Shown here piece by piece: positions 25,865 through 33,272 of a stretch of DNA of 64,000 bases. A program made the translations under genes and the position numbers. The DNA is from Pseudaquabacterium terrae (lineage in GTDB: Bacteria > Pseudomonadota > Gammaproteobacteria > Burkholderiales > Burkholderiaceae_C). The notes under the pieces were generated by a model that made no database searches, was not told the origin of the DNA, and saw nothing but the letters and a program-made list of their open reading frames with translations. Numbering within the stretch: position 1 is the stretch's first letter; every line of letters begins with the position of its first letter. The stretch covers positions 992,001-1,056,000 of the forward strand of contig NZ_JABRWJ010000001.1 in assembly GCF_013266755.1 (NCBI RefSeq). The letters run 5' to 3'.

Positions 25865-25889
25865 AGGCAGGCCGAAGGCGCCGCGCGCT

Positions 25890-26330
25890 TCAGCCGGCAT
25901 TGCGATCGACGCGCACCGCGAGCACCACCGAGGTGTGCGTCTTGATCACCCCGTCGAGCTCGCCGATCTCGTCGAGCAACTGGTCCAGCCGGGCGGTCGT
26001 CTCGGCTTTCAGGATCGCGATGTAGTCGAACTCGCCGCTGACCGAGCTCAGCCACTGCAGCTCGGGCAGCTTCTGCAGGCGCCGCACGACATCGCGGCCG
26101 CTCTTGGGTTGCAGCGTGATGCCCACGTGCGCCTGCACCGCGGGCACCCCGGCCGACGACCCCAGCCGCGCGGTGTAGCCCACCACCGCACCATCCCGCT
26201 CGAGCCGGGCCAGGCGCGCCACCACCGTCGTGCGCGCGATGCCGAGCTTGCGCGCCAGGTTCGCCGTGCTCTCGCGGGCGTTGACCTGCAGCAGCGTGAT
26301 CAGGTCGCGGTCGACCGTGTCCAAAGCCAT
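25890..26330 (-). CDS. Lrp/AsnC-family transcriptional regulator
   Basis: A 146-residue regulator with an N-terminal HTH (LDTVDRDLITLLQVNARESTANLARKLGIARTTVVARL) and a C-terminal RAM/AsnC ligand-binding domain (VQAHVGITLQ onward). The family senses amino acids and forms octamers that wrap DNA. The divergent neighbours degrade lysine, so lysine or a degradation intermediate is the likely effector. Four operator-like repeats start at the base adjoining its start codon, indicating autoregulation together with control of the lysine genes. Confidence 0.92.
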   Translation of the reverse strand: MALDTVDRDLITLLQVNARESTANLARKLGIARTTVVARLARLERDGAVVGYTARLGSSAGVPAVQAHVGITLQPKSGRDVVRRLQKLPELQWLSSVSGEFDYIAILKAETTARLDQLLDEIGELDGVIKTHTSVVLAVRVDRNAG

Positions 26331-26402
26331 TTCGACGAATCCGATTGACGTTTCGTCGAGATCTTAAGTTTTTTCGACGAACTCGCGCTTTCTTTCGTCG
26401 GT
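26331..26402. promoter_or_regulatory. Four TTCGACGAA-type operator repeats at 21-bp spacing
   Basis: Related 9-mers TTCGACGAA (26331), TTCGTCGAG (26352), TTCGACGAA (26373) and TTCGTCGGT (26394) have centres at 26335, 26356, 26377 and 26398, exactly 21 bp apart and alternating in orientation. The array fills the divergent region between the Lrp-type regulator and the lysine-degradation genes. A TAGACT -10-like element follows at 26412. Confidence 0.75.
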
Positions 26403-26449
26403 GACGCTTCCTAGACTGGCGGGATTCGCTAGTCATCACGGAGACGTCC

Positions 26450-27544
26450 ATGCGCATCGCCCTGCTCGGCGCCGGCCACATCGGCCAAACCATTGCCCGC
26501 CTGTTGGGAGACAGCGGCGACTACCAGGTCACGGTGGTCGACCGCAATGCGGCGGCACTGGCGCGCTGCGCCGGGCAGGGCGTGATCACGCAGGTCGTCG
26601 ACACCGAGGATCGCGCCGCGCTGGCCGCGGTGCTGCGCGGGCAGCAGGCGGTCGTCAACGCGCTGCCCTACCACCTGGCGATCACCGCCGCGCACCTGGC
26701 GCTGGAAGCCGGCTGCCACTACTTCGACCTGACCGAGGACATCGCGGCGACCAAGGAGATCATGCGCATCGCCGAAGGCGCGAAGACCGCCTTCATGCCG
26801 CAGTGCGGCCTGGCGCCCGGCTTCATCGGCATCGTCGCGCACCACCTGGCGAAGAGCTTCGATTCGCTGCAGGACGTCAAGATGCGCGTCGGCGCGCTGC
26901 CGGCTTTTCCGACCAATGCGCTGAAGTACAACCTGACCTGGAGCGTCGACGGCCTGATCAACGAGTACTGCCACCCCTGCGAGGCGATCTTCGACGGCCA
27001 GCTGATCAACGCGCTGCCGCTCGAAGGCCTGGAGCACTTCTCGCTCGACGGCACCGAGTACGAGGCCTTCAACACCTCCGGCGGCCTGGGCACCTTGTGC
27101 GAGACGTTGCAGGGCAAGGTACGCAACCTCGACTACAAGACCGTGCGCTACCCCGGCCACCGCGACCTGATGCAGTTCCTGCTCGGTGACCTGCAATTGA
27201 AGGGCGACCAGGAACTGCTGAAGGGCGTGATGCGGCGCTCGATGCCGGCGACGATGCAGGACGTGGTGCTGGTCTTCGTCACCGTCTCGGGCATGAAGAA
27301 CGGTGCGCTGCTGCAGGAAGTGTTCGCGCGCAAGATCTTTGCCGACCGCAGCGAGGGCCACCCGCTGTCGGCGATCCAGATCACCACCGCCGCCGGCATC
27401 TGCGCCGCGGTCGATCTGTTCCGTGAGGGCAAACTGCCGCAACGGGGCTTCATCCGGCAGGAACAGGTAGAGTTGCCGGCCTTCCTGGCCAACCGCTTCG
27501 GCAGCGCGTATCAACAGTCGCGGCAAGTCGAATCGATCGGCTGA
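26450..27544 (+). CDS. Saccharopine-dehydrogenase-family lysine dehydrogenase
   Basis: A 364-residue NAD(P)-dependent enzyme. The N-terminal Rossmann motif is IALLGAGHIGQTIARLLG, and the C-terminal substrate domain (GLAPGFIGIVAHHLAKSF onward) belongs to the saccharopine dehydrogenase family. Single-domain members of this length next to an aminoadipate-semialdehyde dehydrogenase act as lysine 6-dehydrogenase, converting lysine to 2-aminoadipate 6-semialdehyde with release of ammonia. A true saccharopine dehydrogenase is the alternative. The 18-base gap to the next gene indicates one operon, probably controlled by the divergent Lrp-type regulator. Confidence 0.87.
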   Translation: MRIALLGAGHIGQTIARLLGDSGDYQVTVVDRNAAALARCAGQGVITQVVDTEDRAALAAVLRGQQAVVNALPYHLAITAAHLALEAGCHYFDLTEDIAATKEIMRIAEGAKTAFMPQCGLAPGFIGIVAHHLAKSFDSLQDVKMRVGALPAFPTNALKYNLTWSVDGLINEYCHPCEAIFDGQLINALPLEGLEHFSLDGTEYEAFNTSGGLGTLCETLQGKVRNLDYKTVRYPGHRDLMQFLLGDLQLKGDQELLKGVMRRSMPATMQDVVLVFVTVSGMKNGALLQEVFARKIFADRSEGHPLSAIQITTAAGICAAVDLFREGKLPQRGFIRQEQVELPAFLANRFGSAYQQSRQVESIG

Positions 27545-27562
27545 AATCCCAAGAGGACCCGC

Positions 27563-29065
27563 ATGACCCCGCAACACCTGCTCAGCACGCTCGGCGTGCC
27601 CGCCGCCGCATTCGACGCCGGCACCCTCGAAGCCCGCTCGCCGATCGACGGCCAGATCCTCGGCCGCGTCGCCGATGCCGGCGCCGAGGCAATGAATGCC
27701 GCCGTCGAGCGCGCGCATGCCGCCTTCCTCGCCTGGCGCAACGTGCCGGCACCGCGCCGCGGCGAGCTGGTGCGCCTGTTCGGCGAGGAGCTGCGCACGC
27801 ACAAGTCGGCGCTGGCCGCGCTGGTCACGCTGGAGGCCGGCAAGGTCACCAGCGAAGGCGAAGGCGAAGTGCAGGAAATGATCGACATCTGCGACTTCGC
27901 GGTCGGCTTGTCCAGACAACTGCACGGCCTGACGATCGCCAGCGAGCGCCCCGGCCACCGCATGATGGAGCAGTGGCATCCGCTGGGCGTCGTCGGCGTG
28001 ATCTCGGCCTTCAACTTCCCCGTCGCGGTGTGGGCCTGGAATGCCGCGCTGGCGCTGGTCTGCGGCGACTCGGTGGTCTGGAAGCCGTCGGAGAAGACGC
28101 CGCTGACGGCGCTGGCGACGCAGGCGCTGTTCGAGCGCGCGCTGGCGCGCTTCGGCTCGGACGCTCCGGCGCACTTGAGCCAGGTGCTGAACGGCCGTGC
28201 CGCGACCGGCGAGGCGATGGTCGATCACCCGCTGGTCGCGCTGGTCTCGGCCACCGGCTCGACGCGCATGGGCCGCGCGGTCGGTCCGCGCGTCGCGGCG
28301 CGCTTCGGCCGCTGTCTGCTCGAGCTCGGCGGCAACAACGCGATCATCGTGACGCCGTCGGCCGACCTGGACATGGCCGTGCGCGGCATCCTGTTCGGGG
28401 CCTACGGCACCGCCGGCCAACGCTGCACGACGACGCGCCGCGTCATCGCGCACACCAGCATCCACGACGAGCTGGTCACGCGCCTGGAGCGTGCGCGCAA
28501 GAGCCTGAAGATCGGCGATCCGCGCGAGAGCGGCGTGCTGGTCGGCCCGCTGGTCGACCAGGCCGCGTTCGACGGCATGCAGAAGGCGCTCGCCGATGCC
28601 CGTGCGCAAGGCGGCCAGGTCGCCGGCGGCGCCCGCGTGCTCGCCGATGCGCAGCCGAACGCGTTCTATGTCGAGCCGGCGCTGGTGCAGATGCCGGGCC
28701 AGACGGCGGTGGTCTGCCACGAGACCTTCGCGCCGATCCTCTACATGCTGCGCTACGAAGCCTTCGACGACGCGCTGGCACTGCAGAACGCGGTGCCGCA
28801 AGGCCTGTCGTCGGCGATCTTCACCAACGACCTGCGCGAGGCCGAGACCTTCCTGTCGGCGCGCGGCTCGGACTGCGGCATCGCCAACGTCAACATCGGC
28901 ACCTCGGGCGCCGAGATCGGCGGCGCGTTCGGCGGCGAGAAGGAAACCGGCGGTGGCCGCGAGTCGGGTTCGGACAGCTGGCGCGCGTACATGCGCCGCG
29001 TCACCAACACGGTGAACTACTCGCGCGCCCTTCCGCTCGCGCAAGGCGTCAAGTTCGACGTCTGA
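27563..29065 (+). CDS. amaB: Alpha-aminoadipate-semialdehyde (piperideine-6-carboxylate) dehydrogenase
   Basis: A 500-residue aldehyde dehydrogenase of the ALDH7/antiquitin branch. Visible features are PLGVVGVISAFNFPVAVWAWNAALAL, WKPSEKTPLTALA, the glutamate segment LELGGNNAI and the catalytic-cysteine segment GTAGQRCTTTRR. Near the C-terminus are ETFAPILY and FGGEKETGGGRESGSD. The GQRCTTTRR and GGEKxTGGGRESGSD patterns mark the alpha-aminoadipate semialdehyde branch. It oxidises the product of the preceding lysine dehydrogenase to 2-aminoadipate. The two genes convert lysine to aminoadipate in the cytoplasm. Confidence 0.9.
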   Translation: MTPQHLLSTLGVPAAAFDAGTLEARSPIDGQILGRVADAGAEAMNAAVERAHAAFLAWRNVPAPRRGELVRLFGEELRTHKSALAALVTLEAGKVTSEGEGEVQEMIDICDFAVGLSRQLHGLTIASERPGHRMMEQWHPLGVVGVISAFNFPVAVWAWNAALALVCGDSVVWKPSEKTPLTALATQALFERALARFGSDAPAHLSQVLNGRAATGEAMVDHPLVALVSATGSTRMGRAVGPRVAARFGRCLLELGGNNAIIVTPSADLDMAVRGILFGAYGTAGQRCTTTRRVIAHTSIHDELVTRLERARKSLKIGDPRESGVLVGPLVDQAAFDGMQKALADARAQGGQVAGGARVLADAQPNAFYVEPALVQMPGQTAVVCHETFAPILYMLRYEAFDDALALQNAVPQGLSSAIFTNDLREAETFLSARGSDCGIANVNIGTSGAEIGGAFGGEKETGGGRESGSDSWRAYMRRVTNTVNYSRALPLAQGVKFDV

Positions 29066-29071
29066 AGCGCC

Positions 29072-30175
29072 TCACGGCACCACGCCGCTGATGAAGGCGC
29101 GGCGGATCGCCGCGCCGCAGGCCGCCGACTCCGCCCCGTTGCCGAACAGCGCGACGCGCGCGATCACGCCGTAGTGGCTGCGCGCCGCGTCGATCCACGG
29201 GTAGAAGCCGAACGCACCGGCGCTGCTGAAGGCGCCGTCGCCGGTCGCCGGGTCGTCCTCGACCCAGTGGCCGATCGCGTAGTGCCAGCTCATCTGCGCC
29301 GGTACCGGCGCGGACGTGGCGCTCGGGCACGTGGCCGGGTTCGTGCACACGGGGTGGTGGCCGAGCATCGATCCGAGCTTCAACTGCCTGTTCAGCAGCT
29401 TGCGCAGGAAGGTCGCGTAGTCGCGCGCCGTGGTGCGCGCACCGCCGGGCAGCTGCGGCTGCGTGAAGCTGAAGCTGATGTCGGTGCCGAGCACGCGCCG
29501 CATCTCGGCGGCCAGCGTGGCGTTGTTCAGCGCGCCGAGGTTCATGCCGGGTGAGGCGAGGCTGGCGTGCTTCTGCATGTGGCCGCCGTTGTAATGGAAG
29601 CGGCCGATCTCGGCCGGCGTCTGCTGGCCGTTGCTGCCGCGCGCGACGCAGGACGCCACGGTGTCGCCCGGCTCGCAGCCGTTGACCGGAAAGTTGACGT
29701 AGCCGCTGGTGAAGTTCAGGAAGGTGATGTCCTCGGCCGTCAGCGCGCCGCCGCGCTGCTCGGCGACGTAGGCGCCGTACAGCCACTTCGATGCCGATGC
29801 GATGTTCATCACCGTGCCGGCCTCGTAGACCGTCGCATTGCCCGCTGCGCGCACCGAGCCGCCGGCCTGGCGCTGGACCTTGTCGCCGACCTCCCAGTAG
29901 AACGGCCGGATCGCCGCGCAGGCGTTGCTCGCGCTGTTGGCGGCCGTCGTCGCGGCAGCGAAACGCGTCGCATCGTCGACGGGGGGCTGCAGGCTGATGA
30001 TCGTCAAGCGGCCGTCGGCATCGAGCCGCACGACCAGGTTGCGGTAGAGCTGGCCGCCGACGTCGATCGTCGGCACCGTCAGCTGCTGCGTCGCGGTGTC
30101 GAAGACCGCCTGCCCGGTGGCGCAGGTGCTGGCCAGGCCAAGCAGCGCGGCGGCCGCCAGGTGTCGCTGTCTCAT
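29072..30175 (-). CDS. Secreted beta-lactamase-fold serine hydrolase
   Basis: A 367-residue exported protein with a signal peptide (about 1-21, LGLASTCATGQA). The segment VMNIASASKWLYGAYVAE provides the S-x-x-K nucleophile motif of class C beta-lactamases and DD-peptidases. FHYNGGHMQK is a candidate second motif; the third (KTG/HTG) is not obvious. Several cysteines suggest disulphides. An esterase or peptidase role is as likely as beta-lactamase. It converges on the aminoadipate dehydrogenase gene and diverges from the retron-like locus, with its start only about 85 bases before the putative retron RNA. Confidence 0.75.
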   Translation of the reverse strand: MRQRHLAAAALLGLASTCATGQAVFDTATQQLTVPTIDVGGQLYRNLVVRLDADGRLTIISLQPPVDDATRFAAATTAANSASNACAAIRPFYWEVGDKVQRQAGGSVRAAGNATVYEAGTVMNIASASKWLYGAYVAEQRGGALTAEDITFLNFTSGYVNFPVNGCEPGDTVASCVARGSNGQQTPAEIGRFHYNGGHMQKHASLASPGMNLGALNNATLAAEMRRVLGTDISFSFTQPQLPGGARTTARDYATFLRKLLNRQLKLGSMLGHHPVCTNPATCPSATSAPVPAQMSWHYAIGHWVEDDPATGDGAFSSAGAFGFYPWIDAARSHYGVIARVALFGNGAESAACGAAIRRAFISGVVP

Positions 30176-30222
30176 GCGTGTTCTCCTGTCACCGATTCTG
30201 CTGGAGCAGGTTTGCCGCCATG

Positions 30223-30252
30223 TTGCTGCCACGCAATCGACGCGGCTAAGAT
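30223..30252 (+). promoter_or_regulatory. Candidate promoter for the retron-like RNA and RT gene
   Basis: TTGCTG (30223-30228) and TAAGAT (30247-30252) are separated by 18 bases. This predicts a transcription start near 30259, exactly where the left arm of the retron-like inverted repeat begins. Both hexamers are only moderate matches to the sigma-70 consensus. A small palindrome (CTGCT-GG-AGCAG, 30198-30209) lies just upstream. Confidence 0.5.
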
Positions 30253-30258
30253 CGCCGC

Positions 30259-30433
30259 GGCGCCGGCCTTCCCAAGTCTTGCCGAGGCTCACCGACCCCG
30301 TGCGGTGGTTTCGGGCCGCGGGGTTTCCCCGCGGCAGGTTCCAGCACTCGATCTTTTCGGCGCGTGACCGGACCTGCGCTGACGCGCAGACCTGGTCGCG
30401 CATCACCTGCTCAGTTGGGAAGCCACCGGCGCC
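30259..30433 (+). ncRNA. Putative retron msr-msd non-coding RNA
   Basis: The 175-base segment just before the reverse-transcriptase gene has the order expected of a retron RNA. The outer inverted repeats (a1/a2) are GGCGCCGG plus CTTCCCAA (30259-30266, 30268-30275), pairing with TTGGGAAG plus CCGGCGCC (30415-30422, 30426-30433). The left arm is followed at once by a G (30276), the expected branching base. Hairpin 1 is CACCG/CGGTG (30290-30307, 8-base loop). Hairpin 2 is GCCGCGGGG-TTT-CCCCGCGGC (30315-30335). A long hairpin, 30362-30401, has a 10-bp stem with two G-U pairs, a 2x2 internal loop and a 6-bp stem capped by TGAC; it is msd-like. The right arm ends 15 bases before the RT start. Confidence 0.7.
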
Positions 30434-30448
30434 ACCTTTGCCCCGCCG

Positions 30449-31816
30449 ATGCCCGCTTCGTCGACCTACCGCCAGTGGCTGGCCCGTGCCCTCGCCCATG
30501 CACTGCTGGCCGACGCCCTGCTGCCGGGCGGATGCCTGCGCGACGCATTGCTGGCGCGTGCGGCGAGCACCCTCGGCAAGCGTCCGGCGTGGCTCGCGGG
30601 CTTGGTCGATGCGCTGCTGCCCTTCGATCCGCTGCGTGAGGACGTCCAGGCGCTCGGCCGGCGCATCGCCGTCTTGCCGGCATTCGATCCAGCCTTCGAT
30701 GCCGAACACCCGCCGCGCATCCGCCACCTGATCCTGCGGCCGGCGACGATGCTGCGCCGGCCGCTCGGCCTGCACGAGCTGGAACTGCCGGCACTGGCCA
30801 CGCACGCCGATCTGGCGAGCTGGCTCGGCCTCGACAGCGAGCAGCTGGCCTGGCTCGCCGCGCCGGCGCGGGCCTGGCGCCCGCCCGGCGCCGGCGGGCG
30901 CGCCGCCGCCACGCACTACCGCTGCCTGCTGATGCCAAAGCGCAGCGGCGGCCTGCGCCTGATCGAGGCGCCGATGGCCACGCTGAAAGCGGTGCAGCGC
31001 CACCTGCTCGACGGACTGCTCGACCACGTGCCCGCGCACGAGGCCGCGATGGGCTACGTCAGCGGCCGCTCGGTGATCGATCACGCGGCGGCGCACGCCG
31101 GCCGCGCCGTCGTGCTGCGTTTCGACCTGCGCGATTTCTTCAACAGCATCCCCGCGTCACGCGTGCACGCGCTGTGGCACACGCTGGGCTATCCCGACGG
31201 TGCCGCGCGCACGCTGACCGCACTGACGACGGCGCGCACGCCGGTGGCGCTGCGCGAACGGCTGCAGGACGACGGCGGCCTCGATGTGCTCGGCGCGAAG
31301 CGGCTCGCCTCGGCGCACCTGCCGCAAGGCGCGCCGACCTCGCCGGCGCTCGCCAACCTGTGCTGCTTCCGGCTCGATCTGCGGCTGAACGGCCTGGCGA
31401 AGCGCTTCGACGCGTCGTATACGCGTTATGCCGACGACCTGGTGATCTCCGGCCCGGCGGCGTGCGCGAAGCGCCGGCGCGAGCTCCAGGCCTGGGTCGA
31501 GGCGATCGTGCGCGACGAGGGCTTCGCGCTGCAGCCGCGCAAGACGCTGACGATGCCCGCGCACCAGCGTCAGCAAGTGGCCGGCATCGTGGTCAATGCA
31601 CACCCGAACCTCGACCGCGCGAGCTTCGATCGGCTGAAGGCCCGGCTGCACCGGTGCACGCGCGACGGGCCGTCGCCGGCAGACGACCCGCAGCAGCTGC
31701 GCGGCCAGCTCGCCTGGGTCACGCAGCTGAACCCGGCGCGCGGCGCCAAGCTCCAGAAGCTTTTCGAAGGCATCCGATGGCTGAACGTTGCCCCGTCCTC
31801 GACACCCGTGCGCTGA
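30449..31816 (+). CDS. Retron-type reverse transcriptase
   Basis: A 455-residue reverse transcriptase. The catalytic core has PKRSGGLRLIEAP (about 163-175), FDLRDFF (225-231, first Asp), LPQGAPTSPALANL (291-304) and YADD (327-330). Retron-specific regions are recognisable in modified form: HAAAH (212-216) stands where retron RTs carry NAxxH, and VAGIVVN (377-383) where they carry VTG. The ending LNPARGAKLQKLFEGIRWL is typical of the group. A roughly 110-residue N-terminal extension precedes the core, as in some myxobacterial and beta-proteobacterial retron RTs. The putative msr-msd RNA lies directly upstream. The HTH_42 gene overlaps the 3' end by 40 bases, implying coupled expression. Confidence 0.9.
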   Translation: MPASSTYRQWLARALAHALLADALLPGGCLRDALLARAASTLGKRPAWLAGLVDALLPFDPLREDVQALGRRIAVLPAFDPAFDAEHPPRIRHLILRPATMLRRPLGLHELELPALATHADLASWLGLDSEQLAWLAAPARAWRPPGAGGRAAATHYRCLLMPKRSGGLRLIEAPMATLKAVQRHLLDGLLDHVPAHEAAMGYVSGRSVIDHAAAHAGRAVVLRFDLRDFFNSIPASRVHALWHTLGYPDGAARTLTALTTARTPVALRERLQDDGGLDVLGAKRLASAHLPQGAPTSPALANLCCFRLDLRLNGLAKRFDASYTRYADDLVISGPAACAKRRRELQAWVEAIVRDEGFALQPRKTLTMPAHQRQQVAGIVVNAHPNLDRASFDRLKARLHRCTRDGPSPADDPQQLRGQLAWVTQLNPARGAKLQKLFEGIRWLNVAPSSTPVR

Positions 31817-32880
31817 ATCGCGCACTGCTGGCGCGGCAACTGCTGCTCGAGCGGGCCGCGTTGCCGCCGGTGAAGGCGATCGAGGCGCTGGCCGGCATGC
31901 AGACGCAGGCGCCGAACCCACCGTACATCGGCTTGTGGAGCCGGCTCGAAGGCTTCGAGCGCGCGGCGCTGGAAACCGCGCTTGCGAAACGCCGCGTCGT
32001 TCGGCTGGCGCTGATGCGCGCGACGCTGCACCTGGTCAGCGCGCGTGATGCGCTGGCCTGGCGCGCGCTGCTGACGCCGGTGCTCGAACGCGGCGTGCAG
32101 GCCAGCCGCGGCCGCCAGCTCGCCGGGCTGGCGCAGGCGGAGGTCGCTGCCGCAGCGCGGCCGCTGCTGGCCGCGGGACCGCTGACCAGCGCGCAGCTCG
32201 GTGCCGCGCTGCAGCAGCACTGGCCCGACCGGCCGGCCGACGCACTGGCGCAGGCCGCGCGCGCGCAGCTCGGGCTGGCCCAGCTGCCGCCGGCCGGATC
32301 CTGGAACGAGCGCCGCAGCGCGCCGCTCGGCCTGCTCGATCACTGGCTGCGCCAGACGCCGGCGAGCGCGGCGACGCCCGACACGCTGGTGCGCCGCTAC
32401 CTCGCGGCGTTCGGCCCGGCGAGCGCGCGCGATGCGATGGTCTGGTCGGGACTGAGCGGCCTCGGCGCGGTGTTCGAGCGCCTGCGGCCGAGCCTGAAGA
32501 CCTTTCGCGACAGCCAAGGCCGCGAGCTCTTCGACCTGCCGCGCGCACCGCGGCCGCGGGCCGACACGCCGGCGCCGGTGCGCTTCGTGCCCGAATGGGA
32601 CAACCTGCTGCTGTCGCACGACGATCGGCGCCGCATCCTCGACCCGGCGCACAAGGCAGCGATCTTCACGGTCAACGGCATCATCCGCGCGACGGTGCTG
32701 GTCGACGGCTTCGTCGGCGCGACCTGGAACGTCGAGCGAGACGGCGATGCGGCAACGCTGGTGATCAGCGCGCTCGAACGCCCGAGCGCGGCAGCGCGCG
32801 CAGAGATGCGCGCCGAGGGTCTGCGGCTGCTCGCCTTCGTCGCGCCGGAGGCCACGCGGCGCGCGCTGCGATTCGCTTAA
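31777..32880 (+). CDS. Winged-helix HTH_42 (AlkZ/YcaQ-superfamily) protein
   Basis: A 367-residue protein of the winged-helix superfamily that includes the DNA glycosylases AlkZ and YcaQ. The N-terminal segment IEALAGMQTQAPNPPYIGLWSRL carries a Q-T-Q triplet (42-44) where AlkZ has its catalytic Q-x-Q. RFVPEWDNLLLSHDDRRRIL and the closing beta-rich domain (ATWNVERDGDAATLVI) are typical of the family. Its ATG lies within the RT gene, a 40-base overlap, so translation is probably coupled. It may be the retron partner or effector, acting on DNA, or an unrelated repair protein. The 3' end overlaps ridA by 4 bases, tail to tail. Confidence 0.85.
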   Translation: MAERCPVLDTRALNRALLARQLLLERAALPPVKAIEALAGMQTQAPNPPYIGLWSRLEGFERAALETALAKRRVVRLALMRATLHLVSARDALAWRALLTPVLERGVQASRGRQLAGLAQAEVAAAARPLLAAGPLTSAQLGAALQQHWPDRPADALAQAARAQLGLAQLPPAGSWNERRSAPLGLLDHWLRQTPASAATPDTLVRRYLAAFGPASARDAMVWSGLSGLGAVFERLRPSLKTFRDSQGRELFDLPRAPRPRADTPAPVRFVPEWDNLLLSHDDRRRILDPAHKAAIFTVNGIIRATVLVDGFVGATWNVERDGDAATLVISALERPSAAARAEMRAEGLRLLAFVAPEATRRALRFA

Positions 32881-33272
32881 GCCGCGTCTTTCGGACGATA
32901 GGCGATCACGTCGATCTCGACCTTCGCATCGACCATCAGCCGCGCCTCGGTCGTCGAACGCGCGGGCTTGTTGCCGGCGAACTGTTCGAGATAGACCCGG
33001 TTGAAGGCGCCGAAGTCGCGCGCGTCGTGCAGCCAAACGGTTGCTTTGCACACATCGTCCAGCGTGCAACCCGCCAGCGCCAGCACCTGCTTCAGGTTCT
33101 CGAACACCTGACGCGTCTGCAGCTCGATGCCGCCGACGACGATCTCGCCGGCCGCATTGGCAGGCACCTGGCCGGAGACGTAGACGAAGTCACCGGCGCG
33201 CACGGCAGGCGAAAACGGACGCGGTTGGCGGTCGGAAGCGAGCGGCGGGTTGCCGAGGTGTTCGAGGGGCAT
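32877..33272 (-). CDS. ridA: RidA-family enamine/imine deaminase
   Basis: A 131-residue RidA/YjgF protein (VRAGDFVYVSGQVPANAAGEIV, LALAGCTLDDVCKATVWLHD, ARSTTEARLMVDAKVEIDVIAY). The conserved Arg in KPARSTTEA lies where RidA binds the carboxylate. RidA hydrolyses reactive 2-aminoacrylate and related imines released by PLP dehydratases to 2-oxo acids and ammonia. It diverges from the D-amino-acid operon, which encodes such an enzyme, and shares a promoter region containing two palindromic operators. A dedicated role in that pathway is therefore likely. Confidence 0.9.
   Translation of the reverse strand: MPLEHLGNPPLASDRQPRPFSPAVRAGDFVYVSGQVPANAAGEIVVGGIELQTRQVFENLKQVLALAGCTLDDVCKATVWLHDARDFGAFNRVYLEQFAGNKPARSTTEARLMVDAKVEIDVIAYRPKDAA

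What the first reader, a model, noticed from the sequence alone, without database searches (positions are those of the whole stretch)
30259..31816. Apparent retron: structured msr-msd-like RNA directly before a reverse transcriptase
The sequence before the RT gene folds in the retron order. Matched outer arms (two perfect 8-base blocks on each side, interrupted by 1 and 3 bases) are followed by a G at the branching position. Two short hairpins come next, one a perfect 9-bp stem with a TTT loop, then a long 10+6-bp hairpin with a 2x2 internal loop. The right arm ends 15 bases before the RT ATG. A promoter-like sequence predicts transcription starting at the first base of the left arm. The RT carries YADD and modified retron-specific motifs (HAAAH for NAxxH, VAG for VTG). 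Retrons are known anti-phage systems.
Basis: partly seen in the sequence, partly recalled or inferred. Interest (0 to 1): 0.9.

Follow-up and report, generated by a model that had tools for sequence, protein, structure and literature searches.

The report
A retron without a partner gene
This stretch of a bacterial genome encodes a retron, a reverse transcriptase with a folded RNA that it probably copies into a small branched DNA; it belongs to a widespread lineage in which no partner gene was found to be conserved beside it, so its function is still open.

Summary
Window 30259-30433 folds into retron anatomy: outer arms, an AG with G30276 at the branch position, two msr hairpins and a long msd hairpin (z -6.2). 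The RT 30449-31816 follows after 15 bases. Twenty-eight homologous RNAs keep the structure: 22 of 29 predicted pairs show changes on both sides, and covariation is 0.518 against 0.164 shuffled. A covariance model built from them finds the RNA upstream of 76 of 80 named RT relatives from several phyla.

It is a retron by sequence; msDNA, branching and anti-phage activity could not be tested. The RT best fits PADLOC's broad retron models RT_other and RT_outgroup. Its family is separate from the myxobacterial retrons Mx65 and Mx162. Outside frames overlapping the RT, no gene family occurs in more than 9 of 101 neighbourhoods. A sibling genome shows the empty site. The RT has a conserved N-terminal helical region without a convincing Pfam or PDB match. 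A genome inferred to be Myxococcus xanthus also carries a member, apparently a third retron there. New member of a known kind.

The parts
30247..30252 (+). -10-like hexamer TAAGAT, 6 bases before the left arm
   Evidence: [TC]ANNAT 6-7 bases before a1 in 22 of 28 RNAs vs 54 of 2800 background positions (pattern chosen post hoc); strict sigma-70 scan finds nothing
30259..30275 (+). left arm a1 of the msr-msd RNA
   Evidence: own a2 is the best of 28 partners for this locus, and for 23 of 28 loci overall
30276..30276 (+). predicted branching (priming) G, in AAG
   Evidence: AG at the end of a1 in 28 of 28 aligned RNAs; xAG agrees with the TAGC/CAGC/GAGC motifs of known retrons (PMC6868368, passage)
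30282..30314 (+). msr hairpin SL1 (variable sequence)
   Evidence: in 23 of 28 RNAs this segment folds at z < -1 against mononucleotide shuffles; not part of the consensus structure
30315..30335 (+). msr hairpin SL2, 9-bp stem with TTT loop
   Evidence: helix 2, 97.2% of cells paired
30336..30414 (+). predicted reverse-transcribed region (msd), exact ends inferred, holding the long hairpin 30360-30401
   Evidence: helices 3 and 4, all 12 pairs with changes on both sides
30415..30433 (+). right arm a2
30449..31816 (+). retron reverse transcriptase, 455 aa, YADD; extra N-terminal region about residues 1-107 (limit inferred)
   Evidence: PADLOC RT_other 2.3e-126, RT_outgroup 5.4e-120; RVT_1; AF2 pLDDT 88, best PDB match Ec86 RT
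29067..31794 (.). stretch present here and absent from sibling genome G399: minus-strand gene, msr-msd and most of the RT
   Evidence: blastn blocks 25888-29066 and 31795-32886 lie 24 bases apart in L173

Best explanation
It is a complete retron core. Shown by sequence: one RNA of about 175 nt with arms, branch AG, two msr hairpins and an msd hairpin, directly before a retron-type RT, conserved as a unit. Inferred: transcription starts at about 30259 and runs into the RT gene; a1 pairs with a2; the RT binds the RNA and primes at the 2'-OH of G30276. It then copies the RNA from about 30414 leftwards through the long hairpin, stopping before SL2, and makes an msDNA of roughly 55-79 nt branched onto the msr. 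More speculative: the RT-msDNA complex works as a sensor or guard, probably against phages. Because no neighbour gene was found to be conserved, the output would come either from the conserved N-terminal region of the RT or from a protein encoded elsewhere.
For: Fold z -6.2. 22 of 29 pairs with double changes; covariation 0.518 vs 0.164 shuffled and at most 0.111 when slid. RNA upstream of 76 of 80 named RT relatives, and of all 13 family members found in the 27 genomes of the set around Myxococcus (12, the 13th). AG at the branch position in 28 of 28. RT scores: PADLOC, PDB retron RTs by sequence and by fold. One RNA copy in the genome. In 399 Burkholderiales genomes the 6 RNA matches at E <= 0.001 all lie just before a full-length RT (these six loci were also in the training set, and weak matches may be lost at that setting).
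Against: No msDNA, 2'-5' branch or phage phenotype could be tested. The strict promoter scan is empty. Region X reads HAAAH instead of NAXXH and VTG reads VAG, although 13 of the 16 aligned relatives also lack the N. No effector was found linked. A genome inferred to be M. xanthus carries a member, yet the passages I read name only Mx162 and Mx65 among the validated retrons of that species; this lineage may make little msDNA under usual conditions. Nine of the 15 Burkholderiales genomes with an RT match at 1e-40 have no RNA match at E <= 0.001; by the tree six of those nine RTs lie outside this family.
Confidence: 0.91

Rival explanations
1. A decayed or silent retron: the genes remain but no msDNA is made in the cell.
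For: HAAAH and VAG substitutions; the last ten or so RT codons read out of frame over the start of the AlkZ-like gene; no strict promoter.
Against: The RT frame is intact over 455 aa with YADD; the arms and hairpins of the window's RNA pair well; H at the first place of region X is the commonest residue in the family alignment; the RT's conserved part ends before the overrun.
Confidence: 0.07
2. A three-part retron of a new type with the overlapping AlkZ-like DNA glycosylase (31777-32880) as effector.
For: The two genes overlap by 40 bp on the same strand.
Against: Sibling genome G399 has the AlkZ-like gene with no retron beside it and no RT match at E <= 1e-30. No homologue at E <= 1e-5 in the other 100 RT neighbourhoods.
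Confidence: 0.03
3. A three-part retron with the divergent secreted-type gene 29075-30175 as partner.
For: It lies in the same 2.7-kb stretch that is absent from G399.
Against: No homologue at E <= 1e-5 in the other 100 RT neighbourhoods; no Pfam, NCBIfam or PADLOC match; it begins like a signal peptide (my reading of the sequence), which fits poorly with a cytoplasmic partner.
Confidence: 0.03
4. A different RT-plus-RNA defence device (DRT type) that copies its RNA without a branched primer.
For: Weak NCBIfam hits to Drt2 and Drt3a.
Against: Those hits are far below their cut-offs while retron models of PADLOC score down to 2.3e-126. Arms plus AG at the branch point are retron anatomy.
Confidence: 0.03

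Closest known systems
Retron-Mxa2 (Mx65) and Retron-Mxa1 (Mx162), myxobacterial retrons
   Same: RT with an extended N-terminus and msr-msd upstream; Mx65 also lacks the N of NAXXH (PMC6868368, passages)
   Different: The window's RT family is a separate clade. Model R1 finds no RNA of the window's type at Mx65 (L208, only 12 bits, E 0.49) or at the Mx162-type locus of the same genome (L209), nor at L158-L165. The Mx162-type loci have a far longer msd hairpin
PADLOC RT_other (PDLC02949) and RT_outgroup (PDLC03740, labelled retron)
   Same: Best two models for the window's RT over most of its length; both match all 17 aligned members
   Different: Broad RT profiles; they say nothing of RNA, partner or function
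Retron-Eco1 (Ec86)
   Same: Closest solved structure by sequence (7v9u) and by fold (7v9x)
   Different: The Ec86 RT is about 320 aa and was solved with its effector; this RT has about 107 extra N-terminal residues and no effector was found linked
Retrons without a linked effector already in print (Retron-Bth1; others mentioned in a review)
   Same: RT and RNA with no obvious effector; Bth1 makes RT-DNA (PMC12548924, passages; PMC8867640, passage)
   Different: Bth1 is one extrachromosomal case interrupted by a group II intron; here a whole multi-phylum family lacks a linked partner. Whether Bth1 belongs to this family was not tested
Retron type XIII
   Same: RT_XIII is the third-best PADLOC model (3.8e-93)
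   Different: No retron effector among 10 window neighbours; the type XIII partners (ARM/HEAT and SWIM-type proteins) are recalled

Membership tests
retron | RT with YADD and retron region X / region Y motifs | tested here: met
   met with substitutions HAAAH and VAG
retron | msr-msd RNA with pairing arms and a branching G right after the left arm, adjacent to the RT | tested here: met
   AG at that place in 28 of 28
retron | RNA structure conserved with compensatory changes among homologues | tested here: met
retron | RT-dependent msDNA with 2'-5' branch | not testable with these tools
   Needs nucleic acid from cells
retron as tripartite anti-phage system | linked effector gene | tested here: not met
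   Outside frames overlapping the RT, no family in more than 9 of 101 neighbourhoods; no retron effector among 10 window neighbours (an ABC-transporter-type ATPase at 36762 matches ATPase-Toprim_I-B weakly, 6.6e-6, as it does other ATPases). Small, very divergent or unlinked effectors would be missed
retron as tripartite anti-phage system | phage protection | not testable with these tools
   Bench test
Mx65/Mx162 lineage | RT inside that clade | tested here: not met
   Separated with SH-aLRT 100 (quick trees)
Mx65/Mx162 lineage | extended N-terminus of the RT | tested here: met
   455 aa with RVT_1 starting only at residue 163
retron type XIII | type XIII partner genes beside the RT | tested here: not met
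   partner identity recalled

The most novel reading that the evidence does not exclude
An ancient self-contained retron lineage, spread over Pseudomonadota, Myxococcota, Actinomycetota and Planctomycetota, in which RT and RNA travel without a partner gene and the conserved N-terminal helical region of the RT (about residues 1-107, no convincing match in Pfam or PDB) is itself the output or docking module. M. xanthus would carry one as an undescribed third retron.
Probability: 0.27. Interest if true: 0.68.

Novelty: new member of a known kind. Interest (0 to 1): 0.46.

Why it matters
Well-studied retrons guard a linked toxin. A conserved lineage with RNA and RT but no linked gene lets one ask directly whether retrons can act alone or through unlinked proteins. 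Retrons without a clear neighbour effector have been mentioned in print, so the question is known; what is added is a defined family with a conserved RNA. A member in M. xanthus would make it testable in a tractable, non-pathogenic host. Nothing in Rfam 15 overlaps the RNA in the segment searched (29900-32200, E up to 5).

Tried and rejected
Rfam scan of 29900-32200 at E up to 5: five matches, all below the gathering scores and none over the RNA. First genome-contig scan with the single protein found no relatives; the alignment scan did (570 relatives, the best 80 kept). Partner-gene idea: AlkZ-like and secreted-type neighbours rejected. N-terminal region: Pfam gave only stray hits, each in one of 14 members, best E 0.008, and Foldseek nothing better than E 4.5. 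Mobile carrier: 5 plasmid records at E <= 1e-40, 3 of them Burkholderia replicons with at least 80% cover, and 2 partial phage records, so no phage or plasmid link. First alignment of upstream regions mixed orientations because minus-strand loci are not turned; redone after turning. Idea that Mx65 belongs to this family: rejected by tree and by R1. The crude ORF caller missed the AlkZ-like gene in the window row, so its 8 same-strand / 13 convergent count is off by one.

Papers. Passages only were read of PMC6868368, PMC8934634, PMC8867640, PMC12548924, PMC12262390 and PMC9252829. Mestre 2020 (gkaa1149) is not held, so its clade assignment for this RT could not be checked. In the listings of eight literature searches (titles and abstract starts) I saw no paper on a third M. 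xanthus retron or on this RNA; that is not proof of absence.

Full report
OBSERVATION. The region was read and folded. Window 30259-30433 folds at -102.8 kcal/mol against -77.0 +/- 4.2 for 200 dinucleotide shuffles (z -6.2; 0 of 200 as good). The parts are a1 30259-30275, G30276, SL1 30282-30314, SL2 30315-30335 (9 bp, TTT loop), msd hairpin 30360-30401 (10+6 bp, 2x2 internal loop) and a2 30415-30433; the RT ATG is at 30449.

THE RT. The 455-aa protein matches RVT_1. In PADLOC it scores best with RT_other (2.3e-126) and RT_outgroup (5.4e-120), then RT_XIII (3.8e-93); all 17 members of alignment A3 match these three models. NCBIfam retron, group II intron and Drt models match only below their cut-offs. 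By sequence and by fold the nearest solved proteins are retron RTs, Ec86 first (AlphaFold pLDDT 88). Region X is HAAAH and VTG is VAG. In A3, 14 of 17 rows, the window's included, lack the N of NAXXH, so that change is ordinary in this family; within A3, VAG is seen in the window's row alone (read off the alignment). A3 holds 17 of the 18 RTs listed; L043 was left out because its C-terminal end departs from the others.

RELATIVES. Matches to the RT occur in 15 of 399 Burkholderiales genomes at E <= 1e-40, 3 of 21 genomes of the genus at 1e-30, one of them only partial, and 29 of 399 genomes of the family at 1e-70; each count includes the window's own genome. Of the 45 loci L001-L045, 28 gave an upstream RNA by simple anchors. 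The 17 dropped were L007-L015, L017, L029, L034, L035, L039, L042, L044 and L045.

COVARIATION. MAFFT alignment A2 of the 28 gives 29 consensus pairs, 22 with both sides changed. 94.8% of cells pair, against 76.2% shuffled. The covariation score is 0.518 against 0.164 +/- 0.013 shuffled and at most 0.111 when partners are slid. The outer arm block and SL1 are not in that consensus. The arms, tested apart by duplex energy, prefer their own partner: own a2 is the best of 28 in 23 of 28 loci, mean -29.6 own against -16.4 cross. I trimmed the ends by eye on complementarity, which favours pairing somewhat. SL1 folds at z < -1 in 23 of 28.

COVARIANCE MODEL. R1 finds one copy in the genome, E 1.1e-18, next best 2.6. 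Among the 17 dropped loci it finds the RNA upstream in 9 (E <= 4.2e-6), weakly in L010 (0.0061), and not in L009, L011-L015, L017. Of 80 named RT relatives (the best 80 of 570), 76 have a plus-strand match just upstream, worst E 3.9e-4. L117, L124 and L142 have none, and L129 has only a partial minus-strand match; L124 lies near the end of its stretch. At least 4 of the 80 (L075, L079, L083, L114) lie on contigs of the same length as training contigs and are probably the same records. The record titles include Variovorax, Polaromonas, Roseateles, Rhizobacter, Burkholderia, Massilia, Pyxidicoccus, Myxococcus, Archangium, Nocardioides and Planctomycetes; a number are metagenome bins. In the 399 Burkholderiales genomes R1 matches 6 at E <= 0.001, each just before a full-length RT. 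Those six were training loci, so the informative part is that no orphan RNA appears in the other 393 at that setting, which loses some weak matches.

PROMOTER. [TC]ANNAT ends 6-7 bases before a1 in 22 of 28, against 54 of 2800 positions farther upstream. The pattern was chosen after seeing the sequences, and the a1 starts were set by me. A strict sigma-70 scan finds nothing.

PARTNER GENE. Open frames of at least 90 codons from 101 neighbourhoods (80 with up to 3 kb flanks, 20 with mostly longer flanks, plus the window; at least 3 genomes occur twice) were clustered. The largest families are the RT itself and frames that overlap it on either strand. Outside such frames no family occurs in more than 9 of 101 neighbourhoods. 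The 9-locus family has scattered offsets on both strands, and several 6- and 7-locus families are Burkholderia synteny. Effectors under 90 aa, very divergent ones, or unlinked ones would be missed. Among 10 window neighbours PADLOC finds no retron effector, only hits that I read as widespread domains.

EMPTY SITE. In sibling genome G399 the aldehyde dehydrogenase gene is followed directly by the AlkZ-like gene. Window blocks 25888-29066 (90% identical) and 31795-32886 (81%) lie 24 bases apart there. So 29067-31794, holding the minus-strand gene 29075-30175, the RNA and nearly all of the RT, was gained here or lost there. The RT's final codons run into the AlkZ-like gene out of frame.

PLACE AMONG RETRONS. 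A 116-row tree separates 101 rows including the window from 15 rows of other myxobacterial and longer RTs (SH-aLRT 100; quick method, midpoint root). The myRT paper gives the Mx65 RT at FNOH01000027.1 37959-39242 in M. xanthus DSM 16526 (PMC8934634, passage). I infer that G827 is that M. xanthus. With Mx65 and an Mx162-type RT added (119 rows), both fall outside the window's family, while G827's third RT falls inside it. R1 finds the RNA upstream of that third RT (E 1.5e-8; again). In the set of 27 genomes around G801 the 13 family RTs all have it (12, the 13th, L178). None of the 17 other RT loci given does (10, 7; best E 0.62), nor Mx65 (L208, E 0.49) nor the Mx162-type locus L209, nor L158-L165. 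The Mx162 label rests on the long msd hairpin, the N-terminal extension and NAXXH, not on a published coordinate.

N-TERMINAL REGION. Residues 1-116 model as a helical domain (pLDDT 86) with no PDB match better than E 4.5 and only stray single-member Pfam hits. It is conserved among the 14 members aligned and is a candidate output or docking module. This is inference.

IN PRINT. Retrons without a clear neighbour effector are mentioned in a review passage (PMC8867640), and Retron-Bth1 lacks an obvious effector but makes RT-DNA (PMC12548924, passages). So a retron without a linked partner is not new in itself.

VERDICT. A real retron by the sequence tests available, of a lineage with no linked partner found. 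The anti-phage function is plausible by analogy but untested. Interest comes from the solo, widespread and apparently M. xanthus-inclusive lineage rather than from the locus itself.

Noticed in passing
window 29067-31794 vs L173: Empty site in a sibling genome: a 2.7-kb stretch holding the minus-strand gene, RNA and nearly all of the RT is absent there.
   Followed up: yes
window 29075-30175 (-): 367-aa gene starting like a secreted protein, no Pfam, NCBIfam or PADLOC match; one weak PDB match to an uncharacterized protein (5tgf, E 8e-4).
   Followed up: partly
L210 3019-4353, L186: Genome inferred to be Myxococcus xanthus carries, besides Mx65 and an Mx162-type RT, a third retron of the window's family.
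   Followed up: partly
L163, L164, L165 upstream of the RT: Mx162-type loci with a very long, nearly perfect hairpin.
   Followed up: no
L158 upstream of the RT: Another myxobacterial RT with a long hairpin upstream; R1 does not match it and in the tree it groups with neither Mx65 nor Mx162-type RTs.
   Followed up: no
L003 1501-2454: RT relative interrupted by an in-frame TGA although R1 matches its RNA well.
   Followed up: no
L009, L011-L015: Longer RT relatives (open frames over 600 codons) without this RNA type; perhaps fused RTs of other retron types.
   Followed up: no
window 32880-33272 (-): RidA/L-PSP-type protein; matches PADLOC PD-T4-2_B at 1.9e-21, probably only through the shared domain.
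   Followed up: no
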